From: Oryzias latipes
Lineage: Eukaryota; Chordata; Actinopteri; Beloniformes; Adrianichthyidae
DNA length: 64,000 bases
Direction: 5' to 3'
Assembly (NCBI RefSeq): GCF_002234675.1
Contig: NC_019862.2
Location: 27,076,707-27,140,706, forward strand
Shown: piece after piece, positions 11,004-34,163 of the stretch
Layout: each line of letters starts with the position of its first letter
Numbering within the stretch: position 1 is the first letter of the stretch
The notes under the pieces: generated by a model
Told to the model about the DNA's origin: nothing
Database searches by the model: none
The model's input: only the letters and a program-made list of their open reading frames with translations
Made by a program: the position numbers and the translations under genes

Positions 11004-11235
11004 TGAACTAAATCAAAACTTCATAAGGCTTCTCTGATAGTTGCAATGTGGAAGGTCCAAAAGAAGACTGTACTTACAGTATAATGTTAGATCAACTGAA
11101 CACAACATCTCATATTCAAGCTTTCAAAATTCTGACTCTACCGTCTGCATGTTGCAGAGGGAGATTCATCAGACCATCTTCTATGGTCCAGTTTTGGTGA
11201 GTCTGTGTGAATTGTAGCCTCAGTTTGCTGTTCTT

Positions 11236-11307
11236 CTAATCTAATCTAATCTAATCTAATCTAATCTAATCTAATCTAATCTAATCTAATCTAATCTAAT
11301 CTAATCT
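11236..11307. repeat. (CTAAT)n microsatellite
   Basis: About 14 tandem CTAAT units form the left edge of the insertion in the Tc1 relic. Confidence 0.95.
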
Positions 11308-11782
11308 ATTTTTTAGTTGAAATTTAGGAATTTATTTGATATTTTAATTATTTATGTTCTCTACCAGTTTGATATATGTCTATGCATTTATTTATTTATT
11401 TTATTTTTTGTTCACATTAACCATTTTATATTTGTCTATTAAGGTTTATTTATGTACTTATTTATTTATTTTAGTTTTATTCCTTTTACATGTTAGTTGT
11501 AACTCTAATGTTTTCCTCAGAGGGATCCTCCACAGTCCACACAGCGGAGGTCACACAGCGACCCCATTCCTCTCAGTGAATGGGGTCGCTGCAATGGGAT
11601 CTCCGGGGTCTGGCTCCTATGATTAGTGCTGGGGGGTCCTGTGGTAGTGTACTCCGTGAACTTGAGTGGGGGGTCACTGATGTGGACATGTCCCCAAAAT
11701 ATCGTTTCTTCACTTCAGTACAAAGCCAGGTTTGTGCATGGCATCATTTTATCACTCTTATTAACATGGTGTATGTGTTTTT

Positions 11783-16000: not shown

Positions 16001-19000
16001 TTCCTCCAAAGACACTAAAAAAACTCAGAGATTAAATTATTTGGTTTAGGGGCAAATAATTTAACTAATGTAGTCAGATTGGTTCAGAAATTGTTTACCA
16101 CCCTAAGGAAAATCAACATTTCAAAAGTGAAACTTATATGTTTGTTTTTATGTTTATACAAGGGAATTTTTGGTTATAGATATAATTTAAAGAAATTAGG
16201 GGAATAATGTAATCTCTACATTATTCAGGTTTGTGCACAATGAGGTAAAACTAGACCTATAATATTATTTTACTTAAACGGTTTTAAGTTCAGATCTGTC
16301 TGTTCAGTTTTGAAGGAATGATTTTGTGTAAGCATATAGCATTTATTGCTTTATTCAATGTAACCTTAAAATAGGATCTTTTGAATGTCTAACATAAAAA
16401 AAGTGTTTTGTGGTTAGGTGGTTTCCAAAACTGGTGGCTGGCACCCCTTTTCCCTGTTCCTTCCATTTGTTGATCATTCAGTATTTAAAGCAGCAGATTG
16501 TGACTATTCACTGTAGTATTTAGAATGTTTAAAACGGGCTTTTTAGCCCCACAGCTGTGAATAAATGTTGCTCTCCCCCTGAAGGGGCTTGTTTGTGCTC
16601 GTCAAGCGTTCTGCTGTGTGACATTAAAAATCTCTCTGTTTCCAGACATACACAGGCTCCATTCTGGTCGCAGTCAACCCCTACCAGCTGCTGCCCATCT
16701 ACACCACAGACCACGTGCACATGTACACAGATCAACGGCTGGGCGAACTGCCACCGCATGTCTTCGCCATTGCAGACTCGTGCTTTTTCAACATGCGCCG
16801 CAATCGCAAGAACCAGTGCTGTGTCATCAGGTCAGACCCAAGACTGGAGCTCAGTTCCCCCTGTTTCCCTTTGACTGTCAGTGAGTCTAAGCCTTTAGAT
16901 GAGTGCCCTGCTAACTTGAGAGGTGGTTAAACTGGATGGATATGTCTGCGGGAAGTAAAACTAACTGCTGGAGAGGAGTTTTGAAATCTTGGAAAGAATT
17001 GCAACTTTTGAATGAAGCAATTACTCAACCCAATTTAACAACTTAAACCAGATCGTAGACTGTCCTAAATCTAGAAACGTATCGGGATGTGTTTAGGTCT
17101 GTTTGGATGCAGCTTAAAGTAGTTTACATTGCTAGAATAAGGCTGATGCCTTTTGAAAACATTTCTGTCTTAGACAGTTTCAGCGAAAATAAGGTAAGAA
17201 AAAAAGGTAGGAATAAAATAAGCACGTTATTTAAAATATGATTATAATGCTAGAGTTACTTACAGTTGTTATGTTAAAGCTAATTATCATAGGATAAATA
17301 TGTTGACTACGGTACTTTCATTTTTGTAAATGAGTAAAAACTATCTCCCCCAACAGAAAGCCAGGTAGTTTTAAATAGAAAAAAGTAAACCCTTTTTTGA
17401 GTCTATTGCCTTTTTTTTTTTTAATTTTTATGAAAACAAAGAGTCATAACTGCTAAATTGTATACGTACTGCTGATAATAAACAGAGACCTAGAGGAGTC
17501 ATTCGTTACTGGCTAATGGAAACTATAGGTAGTTGGTCCTAAAACAGGTTCATGTGGAACACCTTTTTTAAACTAAGGGGGATTCATTTCAAATGTAGCT
17601 ACTGAAGGCTGATCTGCTGTGCAACTGCAGAAATTGTCTAAGACCAGGAGTTTATTTCAAATTAAACATTCTGGAAAGTTCAAAAATCAAAGATTGTACA
17701 GTCAATTTTATTTAACCCAAAAAGAAGTGATAGAATAGGAGTCAATCAGGAGAAACAAATCACAGTAAAATCCAAAGTAGTTACAGACAAAATCCAAGCG
17801 CTCAAATCTCTGTTGTTTGCACAGCGGAGAGTCCGGAGCTGGGAAAACTGAGAGCACCAAGCTGATGCTGCAGTACCTGGCTGCAGTCAGCGGTCAGCAC
17901 TCCTGGATTGAGCAGCAGATCCTCGAGGCAAACCCCATCCTGGAAGGTTGAAGCAAACTCCTCATATGAGTTTTCCTCAGCAAACTCGCCCCAAATATTT
18001 AATGACCTATGTTTCCATTCCCCTGCAGCCTTTGGTAATGCCAAAACCATACGTAACGACAACTCCAGTCGGTTCGGAAAGTATATTGATGTCAACTTCA
18101 ACAAGAGCGGGGCCATTGAAGGGGCCCGCATTGAGCAGTATCTGCTGGAGAAGTCCAGAGTCATACGCCAGGTGGGCAAATTAGTCAGTGGTAGTAAAAA
18201 GACTAAAGGTCTTGTTGATGAACTTTGTGGACTTCCTTAATAGGCGCCTGAGGAAAGAAACTACCACATCTTTTACTACATGCTGATGGGCATGTCAGCA
18301 GACCAGAAGAAGATTCTTTCTCTTGGCACAGCAGCTGATTACAAGTATCTGACCATGGTACAGTCACATTTCAATAAACGACTTGTTTAATTGTGTGACT
18401 TCGTTGAGTGTGAATCAAACTATATTTAGCTTTAAGTGCTGTAACCCTTCCATTAGGGAAACTGCACAAGCTGTGAAGGGCGAGACGACGTAAAGGAGTT
18501 TGCTCACTTCCGCTCAGCTCTGAAGATCCTCACCTTCTCAGAGGCAGATTCCTGGGAGATTTTTAAACTGCTCGCCGCCATCCTTCACCTGGGCAACGTG
18601 GAGTTTGAGAGTAAAGGCAGCCATTAGACCTTTTTTCTCATACAGCGTCTACAAATGATCTTATCTGTCACATATCTGCTTGATTTCAGGCACCATCGTC
18701 AGTAACATGGAAGGCTGTGAACTCTGCAAATGTTCCCATTTCAACATGGCCAGCCAATTGTTGGAGGCAGGTGTTTTTTGTCTCAGCAAAAGGACGAGCT
18801 TTTTCTGAGGGTCTTCTCTGACTCCATTTATCTGTTATCTTAGGTGGATCCCAAAGCCCTGGAGACCAGTCTGACCCAGCGCTCCGTCTCCACCATTAAA
18901 GAGACTGTCTCCAAGTTTTTAACGAGAGCTCAGGCAGTGGATGGCAGGGATGCTTTCGTCAAAGTAAGTTGCTTCACTCTGGAAAGGCAAACATTACCAA

Positions 19001-20689: not shown

Positions 20690-23600
20690 GTGATCCCATC
20701 AGTAAAATATTAAAAACAACCCTAAACACGAAGACTCTGAACTCATCTAGCCCAACATGCAAGTTTATTCTCACAATACAGATAGTTAGATAAATTTGTA
20801 ATGAGGAAAAGTTGTGATCTGCGATATTAGCGATCAATATTGCAATGACGATATGACTTGCGATACATGAACAACCGGGCATGTAACATGTGTCCAAGAG
20901 CATGTGTTTAGTTTGTTTATATATAATGCCAAGTACATTTCACACTGGATGTATTTGATGTTGGTGTGAAATGTCAGAGTGGTGCAAATCTTGCAAACCT
21001 TCCTTCAGCCTTTTTTTACAGCTCTGTTCCGATATATGAAAGAGTTGGAGTCACATAAACCGCACTTATTCATTTCTCCTTCATAATAAGATTTGGCACT
21101 TCCTTGAGTTGTAAGGGATACCACCCATATGTCACTACAAAATCCGAGTCTCTGATTGGTCAAGGTTCAACTGGTTTACCTTTCAGTGGACATGCATTTT
21201 GTACGTAGAACCCAAAAATGGTTTAGAAACCTGCGTAGCGACGCGTGAATGCAAGAGTTTTGAACGCGGATTCCAAAAAACTGAATACCATATACAGTAC
21301 ATGCGTTTACATAGACTTTTCATTGAAAGTGCTCGCTTGAATGTGACTTGCCGAGCCCAGTGCAATCATAGTTTTATACATCTATTCCATTTCACTGCAA
21401 CAGTTTTATTTGAATAAAATATGGAAGAATGGCACAAGTAAGAACTTTTATGTTACGGAAACAAACCAAAGAACAATGATCTGCCTTTCTGGTAGAACTG
21501 GCTAAAACCAATATGGACAACAATCACAAACAATGTAGCGTGCGCTTGGGCTTTTTAAAAAAAAAATTGGTTTCTTAGTGTATGGGTGTGTAAACATTAA
21601 AGCTAACCATTAATTGCAGTTTACACTGTGTTTTGCATAAGTTCATACCTTAACCTTGATCAATTTATGATTTATTGTACAGGCCTAATTTGTGTCAGCT
21701 AAAAGCATTTTGGTGTCATTTTCCAACAGGACATCCATGATACAAAGCTGGAAGTGGAGCGAATGATAGAGCTGAACACCAAAGCCCTTTTGATCCAGAG
21801 GGTCCTGAGGGGCTACAAATACAGGTAAGCAAACACCAGGCTGCAAATTAGTGTTCTGCTTTTTTTGTGGATATTTATCTTATATCTGCTGATGTCATGT
21901 CATCTGAAGGAGAGAGTTTTTGAAGAAAAGGTCAGCTGCAATTGTCCTTCAGAAAAACTGGAGAGGGCACAAAGGCAGGAAGCTGTTTAAAATGGTACAC
22001 CTGGTTTCTTAAATCTAAATGTTTTTTTTTTAATGGGAATTGAAGAAAACCTTGTATCCAAGCTGGAATTGTGTTGTAACTCTAGGTGCAGCTTGGCTTT
22101 GCGAGGCTACAGGCTCAGGTCCGCTCTCGTCACCTACACCTCCAGTATAAGAGAAAGCGTCAGGCTGCTCTGGTGCTGCAGACCCACATCAGAGGATATC
22201 AGGCCAGGAAGGAATGGCAGCGCAAGAGGAATGCAGTGATCGTGCTGCAGACGCACACCAGGGGCGTGCTGGCACGAAGAGCCCTCCAAAAAATGAAGAG
22301 AGACGTGAGTCTTATGGAAGAACCCCTTGTGCCTCACTCGACAGCTTGATGGGTTGTGTCTGGTCCCTCATTCTGAGCGCTGCTCTTTTAGATGTACCTC
22401 TCTGCTAAAGAGAAAGAAGCAGAGCAGCGGGCTCTGCTGGAGAAACAGAAACACTTAGAAGAAATCTTGTGGAGGAGGCAGCAGATGGAGGCCCAGAAGC
22501 AGTCTGAATCCATGTCGGCTATGGAGTTGGTGGACGACATGTTCGGCTTCCTGCCCGACTCTGTTGGAGGGCAGGAAGGTCAGGCACCTGTGGGATTCGA
22601 GGTCTGGAAGAACTGTTTTTTTTTCAACACCAGGATAGTAAGAGAAACTTGGAGTTTATTAAGTTATATTTATTATCTGATGTGTTTGCAGAATATTGAA
22701 GGGAAACGGACCATCATTGAAGAGATTGATATCGATGAACTGCCCATTGAGGAAAATCTTCCCCAAGAGGACTATGATGACCTCGATGAGTTTACCTTTT
22801 CCAAGTTTGCCTCCATGTACTTCCAGGGTGGAGTCACCTCCACCTACATTCGCCAGCGGCTTCGAAAGCCCCTGCTCTTTCACGAGGACGAGGAAGATGT
22901 TCAGGTACCGTCTTTGAATTCCATTCAAGGTTTTTTCCTGTCTTCCTACTTCGGTAGGTCACTCCGGTGTTTGTTTTGTGTCTTCAGGCTTCGTTGACAG
23001 TGTGGTGGATCATTCTGAGGTTCATGGGTGATCTCCCAGAGCCAAAGAAACAGACCAGAGTTCAACTGAACTCCCCACAGGAGCGATTCATGCCACAGGA
23101 CTTGGTCGCCAGGAAAGACAGACGTCTGAGCCACATGGTGGGCCTGGATCAGGTGGGTCATAGATCTGAAGTTTCCCTCATTTTTGTGGTTGGCACGACT
23201 GCATCTGACATTTTTAAGTGCCCTGTTTCTTTTAGAGGATGCTAAGGAATAAAAAAGAGAACACACCCTCGATAACTGCGGAGGACCCAGCACAGAAGAG
23301 AAAGGCCTCGGTTTTTACAGACCTCCTGACAAAAAACAGGAAGGTGCCCAATGAGAATCTTCAGAACTCTAAGGTGTACACTGTTCCTGAAGGAAACCCT
23401 CGAGCAAGGAAAGGGTCTACCTTCACTGACCTCCTATCCAGAAACAAAAAAACACCAGTTATTCCGGATAACGCAAGTTCAAAGTCCAATTCGAGTTTCA
23501 GGAAGCAGTCCGTCATCATGGAAGAGGTGAGGTGGAGGCTTGAACAAAGCCCCAGTAGACGGCTTCTTTCCGTGCACTCATGAACATGTTGTTCTTTCAG

Positions 23601-26600: not shown

Positions 26601-29600
26601 AACTGTTTTTGCAGGAAAGTAGATGAAGGTAGATATGAGGACTTAAAGGACTTAAGTCTCACAGAATTCACTCAAAACTTAAGGTTTAGAACTTAAAAAA
26701 AAATCTTTTTATGTTTTAGCTCCAGAACATTGTTGTCAGCTCTAAAAATAAAGGCTCTCTCTCTTTTTTTAATCTTCTTTTTAATCTTTAAAAGTGTCCT
26801 CTCAACCTGTTGACAGTGGTCTAATGTTAATTTGAGAAAACAAAATAGTCATTGTAACTATAAGTTTTTAGACTTTAGACCTGTACTTAAATGTAAAGAC
26901 TGCAGACTAGACTTGCACTCGTAAAATGGGACTTTTGAGCTTCTCTGGATGGAGAATATGAAAGACTGAGGAGTAATGATCAACCAAAAAGTGTCAGCAG
27001 AGGTAAATCCTCACTCATGTGACCAAACAGGCGGAACAGCAGATTAACAGAAACAACAGTTTTTCTGCCGCTTTCACTTCTAAATGTTGTCAGGGTTTCT
27101 GGGGGCCTGTGATGAACTCAACTTCTGAGCTCATTTTGTCCTGCTATCCTTCCAGGTCCTCCTTTGCAAAAAAGCAAGTTCATAGTGGCCATAAACTGGA
27201 CTGGAATCACATTCCTGGATGAGAGGGAGAAGAGGCTGCTGGAGCTGTCCTTTCCAGAAGTCACTGGAGTCAACAGCAGCAGGTTGAGTTGTTCTCACCG
27301 ATGCTGTGGAATCAGAGGTTTCTGGAAGTTTTCTTGATGTGGGCACTGTTTTGTCTCTAAAGGGCTGATCAAGCAGCTGGGCAGGCTGTGTGTCTGCTGA
27401 CATTGAAAGGGGACTTTACGCTGAGCGGGTCCAAAGCTGAGGACATGGGCGAGCTGATTACCATGTTCCTCGGTGGTCTGACTGAGCGATCCCAGTATGC
27501 TGTGGCACTGAAGGATGCAAGTGGCCAAGGTCAGAGCCGTCCCTTTTCTCTCACACATCCCCCCGGGTTCTGTTCGTCTCCTCTGAGTGCTGACTGATTC
27601 TTTGGCTGTCTCTTCTCTCAGATGACCCTACCCTCCTCAACTTCAAGAAAGGGGACCTCATTATCATTATTAAGGACAATGAGCTCCTTGAGGGGCGCGG
27701 CTGGGTAAAGGGTGAAAATGACAGCACCAGAAAGAGAGGAGCTGTCCCTGTTGAGGCTATCCTAATACTGCCAACGCTGACCAAACCCACCAATGAGGTC
27801 ATGGTACGTTTGCGTCAATCAAACAGAAAAGAAATCTAGTTATTTTTTGTCTTCTTGCACATACATAGGATTTTTCTTTCTTTATGTCAAACAAACGGAA
27901 GGATAAATATGTCTTTTCTAGTGTTGGTCAGTAGTCTTTCTCACAAAGTTTTGTGCCTGACATCTTTCCACCTTGATGTCTTGATAACTGACAGCTAGTT
28001 TTGGACAGGAATTCCTGTCATCTGGAAAGGCTGGACAAGATTAAAGCACAAAGCAAAGAAAACCATTTAAGATTTGAACATAAAATAAAAGCAAAAACAT
28101 CCCCACAGAAAAACTGAAATATTTAAAAAGAGAGCAAAACAATCCCTCTCATAAATTAGAGGATAAAGACAACAGAAATAATGGAGTTTCATGAGGAATA
28201 TCAGGTATGGTTCTGTGTTCCAGTTCTGCTGAGCTTTAAAAGAATATCCTCTTTAGAGTCTCATCAATCTCCCGCCAAACCAGAGGAAGAACTTGATCCA
28301 GACCAACCAGAAGGAAACAGGGTCAGTGGGTCGGGCGCCTCTGGCCACACTGAAGGAATTCTCTGTGCAATATTTCAGGTTTGTAGTCTGCATGCTTCAT
28401 CTCACCAATCAGCAGAGTAGTGTTTGTGACAGCAGCAACTCCGTTCCTGTTCATTTCATCCTACAGACAGCCCATCAAGGATGTGAACCGCCAGGTGATT
28501 TCGAGGAATGCTGCTCCTGAAAGGCTCTGGGCTCACTCCAGAGAACCCATCCGACAGCCTTTCCTCCAGAAGTTGGTGGGCAACCCGGAGCTCAGCCAGA
28601 AAGCCTGCTTGGCCTTTACAGATATCCTCTGCATGCCAGAGAAAAACAGGATTTTGTCGTTTTTGTCCCTCTGTAGTTTATCCTCTCAGCTGGAATTCCT
28701 ATCATTTTGTTTTAGCTATTGGTTAAAAATCTAATATCCCAATCCAAAGCTTGGGGCACATTGGACTTTTCTGCTTTCTGTGTTTATTCAGTAAAGTTAA
28801 AAACCAATCGAATGTAGAACCTTTTCCGTTGGTATTTTTGCCAACAAGAGAAAATGAGATCTTCTGTAGACATGAATTTTCTTTGCAGCATTCTCAGGCA
28901 AAAAACTGTAGACAACAAAAACTGTATAAACCTAAAGGTTTTAGTGATACATACACAAGCTTTGCACGGCATAACCAAGCACCAAATGAACAAGAGAATG
29001 AACAAGAGAAGTGTGTTTGGTAAAAGCAGCTCAGATTTCCTGCTGTTACGGCTCTTTGACTGCTGTGTACCCATCCTGAAGTACATGGGAGATTATCCCA
29101 CCAGGCAGGTGCAGAATCCTCTGGAGCTCACCGATCAGATCTTTAGTCCTGCTACAGAAAACGAGGCTCTCCGGGACGAAATCTACTGTCAGATAATGAA
29201 GCAGATGACCAGCAACAACAACCGGTGCGTGATTAACTGTTACAAGTTTGGTCATTTGAGTGCTTTCTCATTCAAGAGAGTCTCTAGTGCATCAGCTGCT
29301 CTTGAACACGCCTCTTCTGTCTTCAGGTCCAGCATCGATCAAGGCTGGCAGCTGCTGTGGCTTTGCTGTGGTCTGTTCCCCCCCAGCCAGGCTCTTCTCA
29401 AGCACACTCAGCGATTTCTGGAAACCAGACGCAGAGATGCGCTCGCCTCTGACTGCCTGCAGCGGCTGCAGAGCTCTCTGAGGTTTGACTGAAATTCAAC
29501 ATTGAAAAGGGGGAGAGTTCAAACAATAAAAAAAGAGACTGTGTGATCAGGGTTTTCGGCTTTGAAAGTTGAGGGCAGCCAATGAGGTTTGTAGAAAAGC

Positions 29601-32600
29601 AGTTGCTTCACACCTCCCAGGGTTAGCAGCCTTCATTGCAACAGACCATATCGTGTAACACTGTGGTGAGAAAAGGAAATGCTGTCTTGCGTTTAGACTC
29701 TGCATGCTAAATTTAGGAGAAGGGCTTCCTCACATTTGCATGAAGAAGCAACAGTCTGTTCACTTTACATCAATCAAAAAGACAAACACTGCAAATCGTG
29801 AAGTCAGTACATTTAACTGTTTCATAATTGTGAATTGATAAGAATAACACATCTGTCCTCGGCCCATTTTGACTTGTAGAAATAGTAACTAGTATAGTAG
29901 CTATTGTAAACACAGCATATCATTCTCTACCATTTCTTAATACTAAAAAATAGCCTGAGTTTAAAAATCCACAGAGAATCAAGACCCACCGTGACAATGA
30001 TGGTGTTTTTGTTGTTTCTAACACCTTTTTGTGGCGTTTTTTCTCATGATTAAGGACATAGATAAAGAAAATTCAGCTTAGAATTCCATTTCTAAGTATT
30101 TTTTTTGCCTTTTTAAAAAAATATAGCCTTAAAAAGACCGTGATTGTTACATAGAACTTACAACGGCAAACTACAAGCTCCCTGCACTGCTCCATTCTGA
30201 TGCATCCACTTGTAGACAAATAGATCCCTGAACATCTTTTTTTCCTCCTGTGAGCTGGAATCTGAATCAAAAGATAAAGTTAAAGTCCCACTATCTGTCA
30301 CACACCTAGCACCCTTGGTGTGTGAAGTTTGTTCTCCGCATTTGACCCCTCCCCTGGGGGAGCGGTGAGCTGCAGGCACAGCCGCGCTCAGGAACCATTT
30401 GGTGGTTTAAGCCCCCAATCCAACCCCTTAATGCTGCGTGTCAAGCAGGGAGGCATTGGGTCCCATTTTTAGAGTCTTTGGTATGACTCTGCCTGGATTT
30501 GCACTCACAGGGCGGACACTCTACCACAAGGCCACTGAGCTTGATACAGCTGGATAGATCTGATAGTGCTCGTTTTGTTGTACCAGTAATGTTTGGCTGG
30601 GAGTGTCAGGGGCTGTAAGCTAGTGGGAGTGAGCGTAAACAGAGGGATAATAGCAGCAGGGGAAGCCCTACTTCATGCCAAAAGTCCCGCCCACAAGTCA
30701 GAGGCAAATTTCTAATAAACTACTGCCTCTCCTTTGGTTTCTTGGTTCCTGCTGGTGATTCCTGTTTGGAACGCCAAATAGGGGGTCACACAGTCCAGTT
30801 CTCATATACAATCAATGGAGTGGACACTCTTGAAAATGAAACTAACCGTAGGTACGTTTCCTAAAGTGACTAATTAACTTGTTGCTAAAGGCTCCATTCA
30901 CCTTAAATTGAATATGATCAACTCTAAAGCAGTAAACACACTTATACATTTTTTAGAAACTTTTGTGGCCCCTTTGGTTAGAAATGATGCCCACCCCACC
31001 TATCTGAAGAATCTTATTCATTTATTGTATATTTTACCTCCATATTTGAACAGATATACTCTGGAATACACTGACATACTATGTTGGGTTCACTTATTGG
31101 TCAACCCACTTACCTATGAAAAAGCAAACTACTAAATATGTCATATTTTGAGCACCACTAAACGCAAAGTGACTCACTGTAAATCTCCTGACCACCCTGC
31201 TTTCATGAACAATAAATACTTTAAGCATATAAAGATCAAAGAAGCTTCAGAAACTAAAATGTTCCTAGGTTTTTCTTCTTTTGGTGTAAAGTTGTTCCTT
31301 GGGAGTCAATGGAGGGTGGCTGTAGTCTCTGGGTGGGAGTGCTGCAGGAGCAGAACAGCTTCAGCGAAGGGTCAAGGTTACAAACAGACAGATGAAGCTT
31401 CCTTGTTGGGTCCAATGTCTAAGAAATGCAAACCTTTAGATGTTTTAAGTTTTTGTTTGTGTCATTCTTTTTCTTTTTTGTGTGTGTGTGTTTGACTTAA
31501 TATCCCTCTGCTTTAGGATGGAGCCCAGAAAACTCCCACCACACCACGTGGAAGTGGACGCCATCCAGCAGAACAGCACCAAGATCTTTCACAAAATTCA
31601 CTTTCCTAATGACACAATGGAGGTACGAGCAGGCAGAAAGACATGGTAATGTTAGCTAACCTGTGGTATTTCAAGTGACCACGCTTCTCTTTCTGCAGAC
31701 ACTTGAGGTGGCAACCGGCACCAAGGTCAGAGATCTCATCAAAAGCATTTCTAAAAAGCTCAACCTGATTTCAGCAGATGGCTACAGCCTTTTTGTCAAA
31801 GCACAGGACAAGGTTTGTTTCTCATTTTCCAACCTTTTGACATCATTTTTAGCTTTTTAAGAAATATAAAATCTGTCTCATTTAATTTCAGGTCATCAGC
31901 TTGAACGATACAGACTATTTCTTTGACAGCCTCAGACAGATCACTGACTGGTCCAAGAAATCCAAGCAGATGAAAGACGGTAGCACCACCTGATAGGTTA
32001 CACTCACAATGGGAATGCTGGAGGACTTTCTGCATCTGAAAACACTCTGTATGCTTGTTCTGCAGGCGGGCCGGTCAACATACCCTACCTTGTGTTCTTC
32101 ATGAGGAAGCTGTGGTTTAATGTGATCCCTGGCAAAGATACTCAGGCTGACCTGATCTTTCATTTCCCTCAGGTTCATTTGAATGAACAGCTCATTGTTT
32201 TTCCCGTTCCACCTGAAGCAAATATAAATGCCTCCATAAACATAAGCCACCTGGCAAACTGATAAGATAAAACAAATGAGTCACCGTATTTAACATGGAA
32301 ATGTTTCAAGATTAAAATGTGTTCCTGCATCCCTCTGACTTCAAGGAAGTACCAAAATACCTGAGGGGCTACCACACTTGTTCCAAAGACGAAATGGTCA
32401 ACATCGCAGCTCTGCTCTTCAGAGCAAAGTTCGGCAAAGACAACAGCCAGATGGCCATGCTTACAAAGATGCTAAAGGAGCTGGTGCCCGCCGACCAGCT
32501 GAAGGCCATCTCTGAGAATGAGTGGAAGAAGGTACTTTGCTCTTGATAAATTTGTCAACCCACCGTCCCCAAAACCGCCACTCAGTGAGGCTGTAGCGCA

Positions 32601-34163
32601 GCCATTCTATAAACATCCATGAACTACACCATAAAATCATTTTCAAGCTCCAAACTAACAATAATAAAGCGACGCATTGATTGAGGGTTAATAGCAGGAT
32701 TCACTGCTTAAGTTATTTTAAAAAAAATGTATGTGGCGCAGTGGTTAGCACCTTCAGCTCACCTCTAGAAGGCCCTGGTTTTAACTCCTGTCTCATGTTA
32801 TTGCGTGACTCTGCAAGAGGCTCGCGACCTATCCAGGGTGTTCCCCACCTTCACCCAACAGTAACCAGGTTGAGCTCTAGCAGCCCTGTGCCCCCAAGAA
32901 GAATACAGTGCGTTAAGAAAATGGACGGATGGATGAATTTATGAAGTAAATTAGGCAAAGAAGGTTTAAAGTTTGGCAGGATTTTACTCTCACACATTTT
33001 TGATCAACTTTAAAAGTTGCCGTTGGCCCTTTTGCGGTCAGGAAGATGGGTTGGTAGTATCTCTTTGGGGCTGTTCAACAGTGAAACCGATGCAATATTA
33101 CATGAAAGGAGCTGTTTGAATCTGCAAAAATATGCTGCATGGCATTCATTCACGGCAGCTATTTTCAGCTGCATTTCTTTACAATGGAGGAAATATAGAA
33201 CTATGAAGCATATCTTTGGATGTGCTCCAACTATCTGAACAATGTCAGTACTGTTGGCTTTCCCGAGGTCCCACTGTCAGAGCGGTGAGAGCACAGCCTG
33301 AGGGCTGCAGGGGGTGACAGAAAACTACTAACCTCATTAAGTGTTGCAGAGAATTTCACCGAACAAGGAAGCTCTATCTTGATGCATATTTAAAATGTAT
33401 GTTTTTTCCAGAACATTGCCACCTCCTATAACAAACAAGGCAACATGACTGCTGATGAGGCTAAAGTGGGCTTCCTGAAGGCAGTTTCGCGCTGGCCGAC
33501 GTTTGGCTGTGCTTTCTTCGAAGTGAAGGTAAGCGCTGTCAGCAAACGCCCTGCAGAAATCGCTTTATCTTTTCATCTGTGATCAATTTGGAGTGGGTGG
33601 CAGACTTGTGCTCATGTCATGTCTTTTGAAACCTCAGTCACCATGCCAAACTTGCTGCAGAAACCACTGTTAGAGAAGACTTCTGTTCTGTTTTGTTTTC
33701 AGCAAACGTCTGAACCCAGCTTCCCAGATATTGTGCGAATAGCCATCAGCAAGCTGGGACTCACAATCATCCACCCTAAAACTAAGGTTAAACGCATTAC
33801 ATTTAATGTAAATGACAGCATGGATGGCATTCAGCTGACCTCTTTGTTGACTCTGTTTTTAAAGGAGGTTCTTGCGACTCATCCATTCAATCGCATTGCA
33901 AGTTGGTGCAGCGGCAGCACCTATTTTCACATGACTATTGGCAGTTTAGTCAAGGGCAACAAATTCCTGTGTGAAACTTCACTGGTAACGCACCTCTTTA
34001 AAACGCACTAAACTTGCTGAGAACCACTTGACATGCTTTTTCCTAAATACTTTGTTCTTTTTTTAAGGGTTACAAGATGGATGATCTTATAACCTCCTAT
34101 GTCAATGTGTATTTGAGGGACAGAAGGCCTGCACAGCCCAGGAACCAGCGCTTCAACATGTGA
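13001..34163 (+). CDS. MYO7B: MYO7B, unconventional myosin VIIb (47 coding exons, 2228 residues)
   Basis: Actin-based motor of class VII. In mammals MYO7B works at the tips of brush-border microvilli in gut and kidney, linked to protocadherin adhesion through its MyTH4-FERM tails. The exons sum to 6687 nt, an exact multiple of three, with every splice phase consistent. Order is SH3-like N-terminus, motor, IQ motifs, short charged helix, MyTH4-FERM, SH3, MyTH4-FERM, as in the class VII family. The start ATG (13001, followed by G) lies in a short exon coding MVHLSK; the stop is at 34161-34163. Paralogue choice (7B over 7A) rests on SAP130 and GPR17 being neighbours and on residues such as [12 protein letters not shown]. 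At 2228 residues it is longer than I remember for human MYO7B (about 2116). Exon 24 supplies much of the excess. Exon lists are in the segment entries. Confidence 0.93.
14305..14849. repeat. Foldback repeat in MYO7B intron 3
   Basis: Arm 14305-14407 is the reverse complement of 14748-14849, with roughly one change per ten bases (shared words include GTGTCTGATGTTGGGATG and GGGTCACAT). A partial direct third copy lies at about 14620-14672. No coding function is evident. Confidence 0.75.
14880..15600. repeat. Old dispersed repeat, copy 1 (MYO7B intron 3)
   Basis: It shares ordered words with 24930-25400: TTTTCCCAAGGTT, CCCATAATGATTTCAAAACT followed by GGATATCC, then GTGTGTGCACATTTTGGTGAC and CAATACAGTTTTTGCAGTC. 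Divergence is high, implying age. Class unknown. Confidence 0.5.
15601..16645 (+). other. Rest of MYO7B intron 3, nothing recognised
   Basis: AT-rich intron sequence with only short, unsupported open frames up to the CTGTTTCCAG acceptor of exon 4. Confidence 0.6.
18767..18843 (+). other. MYO7B: Probable GC-AG intron in MYO7B
   Basis: Exon 9 must end after codon GAG at 18766 to join GTG GAT at 18844 in frame and give LLEVDP (LLEVNP in MYO7A). The intron then begins GCAGGT. Using the GT at 18771 adds four bases and shifts the frame. Confidence 0.65.
20800..21105. repeat. Dispersed repeat, second copy of the 'gcgatat' family
   Basis: Words ATGAGGAAAAGTTGTGATCT, GCGATATTAGCGATCAATATTGC and ATATGACTTGCGATAC recall 3470-3865. 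It lies in MYO7B intron 17. The right boundary is uncertain. Confidence 0.4.
21110..21365 (-). repeat. Dispersed repeat, minus copy related to 57658-57935
   Basis: Its reverse complement aligns by eye with 57658-57935. Shared words are GTTCAAAACTCTYGCATTCACG, TCTATGTAAACGC-like TTATGTAAACGC, and CCAGTTGAA followed by TTGACCAATCAG. The class is unknown. Confidence 0.55.
21730..22601 (+). CDS. MYO7B: MYO7B segment: IQ motifs and charged helix (exons 18-21)
   Basis: Exons 21730-21824, 21910-21994, 22086-22304 and 22392-22601. They code about residues 748-950. IQ-like calmodulin/light-chain sites appear as [40 protein letters not shown] and [14 protein letters not shown], with a further weaker repeat between them. 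A Glu/Lys/Arg-rich helix ([19 protein letters not shown]) follows and could be a short coiled coil or single alpha-helix. The segment ends with an [15 protein letters not shown] motif conserved in class VII myosins. Confidence 0.9.
22692..24148 (+). CDS. MYO7B: MYO7B segment: first MyTH4 domain, with a 97-residue insertion exon (exons 22-27)
   Basis: Exons 22692-22904, 22988-23152, 23236-23526, 23601-23752, 23827-23953 and 24029-24148. MyTH4 landmarks are YTFSKFA-like [66 protein letters not shown] and FCAERLRR-like [10 protein letters not shown]. Exon 24 (291 nt, 97 codons) is low-complexity, basic and Ser/Asn-rich. It carries two copies of RKxSxFTDLLxxNxK and falls between the halves of the domain, where I know of no such motif in mammalian MYO7A or MYO7B. 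Confidence 0.9.
24930..25400. repeat. Old dispersed repeat, copy 2 (MYO7B intron 27)
   Basis: It parallels 14880-15600: CTTCCCAAGGTTAAAAGTCA, CATCCCATAATATTTTCAGA, TGGATATCC, GTGTGTGCAAATTTTGATGG and CCTTGCAGTCCAGGGCTGCTG appear in the same order. No open frame. Confidence 0.5.
25556..27282 (+). CDS. MYO7B: MYO7B segment: first FERM domain (exons 28-32)
   Basis: Exons 25556-25729, 25808-26035, 26115-26282, 26364-26481 and 27156-27282. The ubiquitin-like F1 lobe starts with KKP-like [14 protein letters not shown]. The segment continues with [26 protein letters not shown] and [17 protein letters not shown], then a PH-like lobe with [17 protein letters not shown]. These match class VII FERM domains, which bind membrane-adhesion scaffolds. 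Confidence 0.9.
27363..27803 (+). CDS. MYO7B: MYO7B segment: end of FERM 1 and SH3 domain (exons 33-34)
   Basis: Exons 27363-27529 and 27622-27803. Exon 33 completes the FERM lobe ([18 protein letters not shown]). Exon 34 codes an SH3 fold with [20 protein letters not shown] and GAVPVEAI. The usual ALYDY motif is weak, as is common in myosin VII SH3 domains. Confidence 0.88.
28257..31622 (+). CDS. MYO7B: MYO7B segment: second MyTH4 domain (exons 35-39), interrupted by an AT-AC intron
   Basis: Exons 28257-28378, 28467-28621, 29071-29224, 29327-29482 and 31517-31622. Landmarks are [62 protein letters not shown] and [15 protein letters not shown]. Exon 36 to exon 37 is joined only by an intron starting ATATCCTC and ending AC; this gives the conserved [10 protein letters not shown]. 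Exon 39 begins FERM 2 with [12 protein letters not shown]. Confidence 0.9.
28622..29070 (+). other. MYO7B: U12-type AT-AC intron in MYO7B
   Basis: The intron starts ATATCCTCT, close to the minor-spliceosome 5' consensus ATATCCTTT, and ends in AC. A branch-site-like CTCTTTGAC lies at 29052-29060, with the likely branch A 11 nt from the 3' end, within the usual U12 range. Joining the flanks gives A-ILKYMGDY, as in other class VII myosins, and keeps the frame. No GT-AG alternative nearby does so. Confidence 0.85.
30040..30720. repeat. Dispersed repeat family X, copy 1, split by a SINE
   Basis: It contains GCTCCATTCTGATGCATCCA, GACAAATAGATCC, a GAGCTGGAATCTGAATCA block and AAATTTCTAATAAACTAC. 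Copies lie at 50505-51100 and 62250-62612 in the same orientation. The copy here is split at about 30266-30540 by another retroposon. Located in MYO7B intron 38. Confidence 0.7.
30266..30540 (-). repeat. tRNA-related retroposon nested in family X
   Basis: It runs from AAGTCCCACTATCTGTCACA through TTTGACCCCTCCCCTGGGGG to GGCGGACACTCTACCACAAG and GCCACTGAGC. The end resembles a tRNA-like head read on the minus strand (GGATTTGCACTC as a B-box-like word). Flanking family X sequence resumes on both sides. Confidence 0.55.
30721..31516 (+). other. Rest of MYO7B intron 38, nothing recognised
   Basis: No conserved exon seen. A 75-residue open frame at 30908-31135 resembles no protein that I know. 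Confidence 0.6.
31699..34163 (+). CDS. MYO7B: MYO7B segment: second FERM domain and C-terminus (exons 40-47)
   Basis: Exons 31699-31812, 31892-31979, 32066-32172, 32346-32531, 33412-33528, 33703-33786, 33865-33984 and 34068-34163. Class VII landmarks include [39 protein letters not shown] and [17 protein letters not shown]. The last residues, ...[12 protein letters not shown], differ from mammalian MYO7 tails. Intron 33787-33864 is only 78 nt and has no in-frame stop. Confidence 0.9.
32731..32945 (+). repeat. tRNA-derived SINE, plus strand
   Basis: It begins GTGGCGCAGTGGTTAGCACC, has a degraded B box, and ends with CCAAGAAGAATACAGTGCG and the GGACGGATGGATGAA tail. It lies in MYO7B intron 43. 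Confidence 0.7.

What the first reader, a model, noticed from the sequence alone, without database searches (positions are those of the whole stretch)
28622..29070. AT-AC (U12-type) intron inside the second MyTH4 domain of MYO7B
The 5' end ATATCCTCT, the 3' AC and a branch-like CTCTTTGAC 11 nt upstream all fit the minor spliceosome. The splice restores the conserved [10 protein letters not shown]. If real, full-length MYO7B in this fish depends on minor splicing. I do not recall whether myosin VII genes are listed with U12 introns.
Basis: partly seen in the sequence, partly recalled or inferred. Interest (0 to 1): 0.7.

Follow-up and report, generated by a model that had tools for sequence, protein, structure and literature searches.

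The report
Minor-spliceosome intron in fish myosin-7B gene
One intron in this myosin-7 gene carries the rare start and end signals, and a fair branch signal, read by the cell's second, minor splicing machine, so making the whole protein should depend on that machine; the intron is of a well-known kind.

Summary
Between exons 28467-28621 and 29071-29224 of a myosin-VII tail lies a 449-nt phase-1 intron. It begins ATATCCTCT, ends AC, and has a branch-like CTCTTTGAC with its A 11 nt before the intron end. Of 18,145 in-frame stop-free joins, this one matches MYO7A plus MYO7B best (532); the best GT-AG join scores 460. No GT starts at 28577-28655 and no AG ends at 29035-29080. Homology alone leaves 13 other registers within 12 points; none of these has recognised splice ends. 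A U12 AT donor with AC in register arose 7 times in 300,000 Markov trials (19 counting the U12 GT-AG form). The other 11 introns of my tail model are GT-AG. The 534-residue tail aligns over residues 26-519 with MYO7B (663 bits) and slightly less well with MYO7A (645). I support a U12-type AT-AC intron: a new member of a known kind. No RNA reads and no second species could be examined, so use in vivo and conservation are inferred. The branch site is imperfect (two mismatches to TTCCTTRAY).

The parts
28467..28621 (+). exon upstream of the AT-AC intron (QPIKDVN...KACLAFT + first base of Ala codon)
28622..29070 (+). 449-nt phase-1 AT-AC intron, inferred U12-type
28622..28630 (+). 5' splice site ATATCCTCT: matches ATATCCTY exactly, one mismatch to ATATCCTTT
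29052..29060 (+). branch-like CTCTTTGAC, branch A at 29059, 11 nt before the intron end; 2 mismatches to TTCCTTRAY
29069..29070 (+). 3' splice site AC
29071..29224 (+). exon downstream (rest of Ala codon, [10 protein letters not shown]...)
28257..34163 (+). modelled myosin-VII tail (second MyTH4-FERM), 13 exons, 11 GT-AG introns and this one AT-AC intron; left edge of the first exon approximate
   Evidence: four of the GT-AG introns placed by eye
17826..17849 (+). myosin motor P-loop GESGAGKT upstream on the same strand, inferred to belong to the same gene

Best explanation
It is a minor-spliceosome (U12-type) intron of the AT-AC subtype in the tail of a myosin VII gene, probably MYO7B. Inferred working: U11 and then U6atac pair with ATATCCT at the 5' end; U12 pairs with UCUUUG-A-C and pushes out the branch adenosine at 29059; the 3' splice is made at the AC 11 nt on. 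The result is the phase-1 codon G|CC (Ala) and an unbroken MyTH4. Shown here: the sequence elements, their spacing, the reading frame, the homology, and the lack of an equally good major-class join. Inferred: recognition by the minor spliceosome and use in the animal. If the intron is kept, the frame stops at 28732, before the second FERM domain.
For: Best of 18,145 joins; the 13 other registers within 12 points have no recognised splice ends. The same procedure on 7 of the 11 other tail introns found a GT-AG pair within 0-7 points of the top in each, so it would have found one here; the remaining 4 GT-AG introns were placed by eye and checked only for ends, frame and translation. Donor matches ATATCCTY. 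A-to-3'ss distance 11, inside the published optimum of 11-13 nt (PMC3584512, passages). Null: 7 hits in 300,000 trials for AT donor plus AC. A U12 duplex (recalled snRNA segment) as stable at only 74 of 3,570 plus-strand AC ends. Tail of 534 residues open, 663 bits to MYO7B over residues 26-519. Phase 1 fits the reported bias of U12 introns against phase 0 (PMC7367187, passages).
Against: No RNA evidence and no orthologous intron. The branch site has 2 mismatches to TTCCTTRAY; when at most 1 mismatch was asked for, this donor paired only with a site far off at 31919, in a later exon. One of the 11 GT-AG acceptors checked in the same call (32345) has a more stable U12 duplex (-6.6 against -6.1 kcal/mol; consensus -9.5), so the branch alone proves nothing. 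Homology separates the AT-AC register from the next three by only 2 points with both guides and ties it with a CA-TG register with MYO7A alone. Pyrimidine content before the acceptor (0.65) is low but equals that of one GT-AG acceptor, 33411. The motif was chosen after it was seen, so the null is a guide only.
Confidence: 0.93

Rival explanations
1. The intron is AT-AC by its ends but spliced by the major (U2) spliceosome, as some AT-AC introns are.
For: Such introns exist (PMC6717393, passages).
Against: The donor has TATCCT at +2 to +7, the U12 form; the U2-type AT-AC donors that I recall read ATAAG. Branch distance 11 nt fits U12. In zebrafish AT-AC ends make up 22% of U12-type introns but 0.02% of U2-type introns (PMC7367187 Table 2).
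Confidence: 0.03
2. A GT-AG or GC-AG intron with other exon ends, or a missed micro-exon, is used, and the AT-AC join is a coincidence.
For: GC at 28631 and AG ending at 29034 permit an in-frame join scoring 480.
Against: That join inserts residues absent from the MYO7A and MYO7B chains; the best GT-AG join scores 460 against 532. No GT starts from 28577 to 28655 and no AG ends from 29035 to 29080. Upstream homology runs to the proposed edge, which leaves little room for a micro-exon; micro-exons were not enumerated.
Confidence: 0.03
3. The exon edges are altered by an assembly error or the copy is a pseudogene.
For: Only one assembly was seen; no second copy could be compared.
Against: The modelled tail is open to its stop and homologous to MYO7B over residues 26-519 of 534; a motor P-loop lies upstream. 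An error would not be expected to make a U12 donor and AC in register.
Confidence: 0.01

Closest known systems
U12-type (minor) AT-AC introns of vertebrates
   Same: ATATCCTY donor, branch A 11 nt from an AC acceptor, phase 1
   Different: Branch site has two mismatches to TTCCTTRAY; +8 is C where the consensus given in PMC2831892 has T
Minor intron of Myo10 (retained in SMA mice, as stated in PMC6558932, passage)
   Same: Also a MyTH4-FERM myosin gene with a minor intron
   Different: The passage does not say which Myo10 intron; whether the position is homologous is unknown
Intron beside the first MyTH4 segment of the same gene (22905-22987)
   Same: Lies in the repeated MyTH4 region of the same protein
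   Different: GT-AG, phase 0, and by my hand alignment 22 nt upstream of the matching place, so probably not a duplicated copy

Membership tests
U12-type AT-AC intron | 5' splice site ATATCCTY | tested here: met
   ATATCCTCT at 28622
U12-type AT-AC intron | branch site like TTCCTTRAY (TCCTTAAC) | tested here: inconclusive
   CTCTTTGAC, 2 mismatches; as good before 323 of 7,242 AC ends; not found when at most 1 mismatch was asked for
U12-type AT-AC intron | branch to 3' splice site short, optimum 11-13 nt | tested here: met
   11 nt; optimum from PMC3584512, passages
U12-type AT-AC intron | AC acceptor restoring the reading frame and conserved protein | tested here: met
   best of 18,145 joins, by 2 points
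U12-type AT-AC intron | no distinct polypyrimidine tract | tested here: inconclusive
   0.65 pyrimidine in 20 nt, joint lowest of 12 acceptors, with 33411
U12-type AT-AC intron | excision by the minor spliceosome | not testable with these tools
   needs RNA
myosin VII (MYO7B) | second MyTH4-FERM closer to MYO7B than MYO7A | tested here: met
   662.7 (5mv7) against 644.9 bits (5mv9); a small margin, and the shorter 155-residue piece scored higher with MYO7A (186.5) than MYO7B (177.1)
U2-type GT-AG intron | GT and AG at the exon edges that homology allows | tested here: not met

The most novel reading that the evidence does not exclude
The U12 intron is old and shared across myosin VII, including the Usher gene MYO7A, so hair-cell and brush-border myosin VII output is gated by minor splicing and rare MYO7A variants near this acceptor would strike a U12 branch site. 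By my recollection human MYO7A has a phase-1 junction at c.5326/5327, codon 1776. That is this very codon if chain 5mv9 (527 residues, Ala at 88) ends at residue 2215 (recalled). The class of the human intron I do not know.
Probability: 0.15. Interest if true: 0.6.

Novelty: new member of a known kind. Interest (0 to 1): 0.32.

Why it matters
If used, full-length transcripts of this myosin depend on the minor spliceosome at this intron, and retention would stop the protein before its last FERM domain. It gives a cheap test case in fish mutants of minor-spliceosome parts, where the gut brush border (the place of MYO7B in mammals, recalled) could be examined. In itself one more U12 intron is not surprising: about 700 human genes are said to need minor splicing (start of the abstract of PMC12332006, as listed).

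Tried and rejected
Orthologues: one scan each of viral contigs and genome contigs gave no relative; by their descriptions they hold viruses and prokaryotes, so this says nothing about conservation.

Papers: ten full-text searches were made, all that the cap allows. MYO7A + minor intron: 0 papers; MYO7B + U12: 0; MYO7A + c.5327-11A: 0; three of four of U12-type introns, myosin, AT-AC, zebrafish: 27 papers, 20 listed; MYO7A + c.5327: 0; MYO7A + 5326+: 0; Myo10 + U12-dependent intron: 1; Myo10 + minor introns: the same 1; Myo7 + minor spliceosome: 2; MYO7A + U12: 11. Of the 12 different papers I looked for the terms inside three: in PMC8703989 the 'U12' found is the patient number U1241, in PMC9715561 an instrument code, and in PMC9604452 the passages do not tie Myo7 to U12 introns. 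The other nine I did not open. I saw passages of PMC6558932, PMC2831892 (one section), PMC7367187 (one section), PMC6717393 (its two 'myo' hits stand in a reference on myotonia), PMC3584512 and PMC10639083. Supplementary gene lists could not be read, so 'unlisted' is not shown.

Other U12-like donors in the window: the one at 28244 seems part of the pyrimidine tract before the exon at 28257 (my reading); the rest were not placed in an exon model.

Full report
What is there. The window holds a myosin gene on the + strand: the motor P-loop GESGAGKT is at 17826 and the tail ends with a stop at 34161-34163. The tail from 28257 was modelled as 13 exons and 12 introns. Its 534-residue translation is open and matches PDB chains of MYO7B best (5mv7, 662.7 bits, query 26-519) and of MYO7A a little less (5mv9, 644.9 bits). 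The shorter 155-residue piece round the junction leans the other way (MYO7A 186.5, MYO7B 177.1), so 'MYO7B' is probable rather than settled. Eleven of the 12 introns are GT-AG; the twelfth, 28622-29070, is AT-AC. Seven of the eleven were tested by enumeration; the other four were placed by eye at GT-AG ends.

The junction. The upstream exon ends ...KACLAFT plus G, the downstream exon starts CC ATC CTG AAG; together they give ...[13 protein letters not shown], aligned without a gap with MYO7A ([13 protein letters not shown]) and MYO7B (IFVAILRYMGDYP). Joins with the intron's first base at 28500-28759 and last base at 28900-29139 were enumerated: 18,145 are in frame and free of stops. Scored against MYO7A (5mv9) plus MYO7B (5xbf), the AT-AC join is top (532). 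The next are 530 with CA-TG, AC-GT and TA-TG ends, then 522 (two) and 520 (eight), none with recognised splice ends; the best GC-AG is 480 and the best GT-AG 460. No GT starts from 28577 to 28655 and no AG ends from 29035 to 29080. With MYO7A alone as guide the AT-AC join ties with a CA-TG one. In the seven control introns a GT-AG pair was within 0-7 points of the top each time, though top itself in only one and tied in one more.

The signals. Donor ATATCCTCT: exact to ATATCCTY, one mismatch to ATATCCTTT. The motif itself is no rarity in this window (ATATCCTYT 3 found, 1.0 expected; RTATCCTY 7 found, 5.2 expected). What is unlikely is that it falls on the exon edge with AC at the other edge: 7 hits in 300,000 Markov-1 trials over 20 registers, 19 if the U12 GT-AG form is counted too; the product of window frequencies gives 5.3e-5. 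The branch-like CTCTTTGAC, A at 11 nt, has 2 mismatches to TTCCTTRAY; 323 of 7,242 AC ends do as well. Pairing with a recalled U12 segment gives -6.1 kcal/mol, reached by 74 of 3,570 plus-strand AC ends, while the consensus gives -9.5; one of 11 GT-AG acceptors does better, -6.6. With at most one branch mismatch allowed, the donor found only a far site at 31919. The spacing is inside the optimum of 11-13 nt stated in PMC3584512 (passages). The consensus ATATCCTT / TCCTTAAC / AC is as given in PMC2831892 (passages).

What follows. In zebrafish, 22% of U12-type introns but 0.02% of U2-type introns are AT-AC (PMC7367187 Table 2, section 17 read), so ends and donor together point to the minor class. 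A kept intron would add 37 codons and stop at 28732, before the second FERM domain. The intron near the first MyTH4 of the same gene (22905-22987) is GT-AG, phase 0, and lies 22 nt upstream of the matching place by my hand alignment, so the U12 intron was probably not copied with the domain.

What is known. Myo10, another MyTH4-FERM myosin, is said to hold a minor intron (PMC6558932, passage), position not given there. In ten full-text searches I saw no text that ties MYO7A or MYO7B to U12 introns; supplementary lists were out of reach, and nine of the twelve papers were not opened. U12 introns are conserved between human and other vertebrates in at least 90% of cases (PMC2831892, passage; PMC10639083, passage, gives 91% for zebrafish), so the human orthologue may well carry it and it may already stand in a database.

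Verdict. It is a new member of a known kind, of modest interest unless the intron proves shared with MYO7A.

Noticed in passing
28244-28252: A second ATATCCTCT on the same strand, in the pyrimidine tract just before the exon at 28257; looks like a chance U12-donor match within an ordinary acceptor.
   Followed up: partly
28622-28632 and 29071-29081: The start of the intron (ATATCCTCTG) and the start of the next exon (CCATCCTGAA) share ATCCT, so read-through upstream also spells ...DIL; this is why eight registers give the same protein (TDIL).
   Followed up: partly
30280-30545: A SINE-like stretch (tRNA-like box sequences on the minus strand, a recalled pattern) in the 2,034-nt intron; no second copy in the window by blastn, ARAGORN and Rfam found nothing in the window.
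   Followed up: partly
11235-11308: Perfect tandem array of TCTAA, 14.8 copies.
   Followed up: no
34101-34163: The protein's C-terminal end (after ...SYVNVYL) lies outside the alignment with MYO7B, which stops at residue 519 of 534.
   Followed up: no
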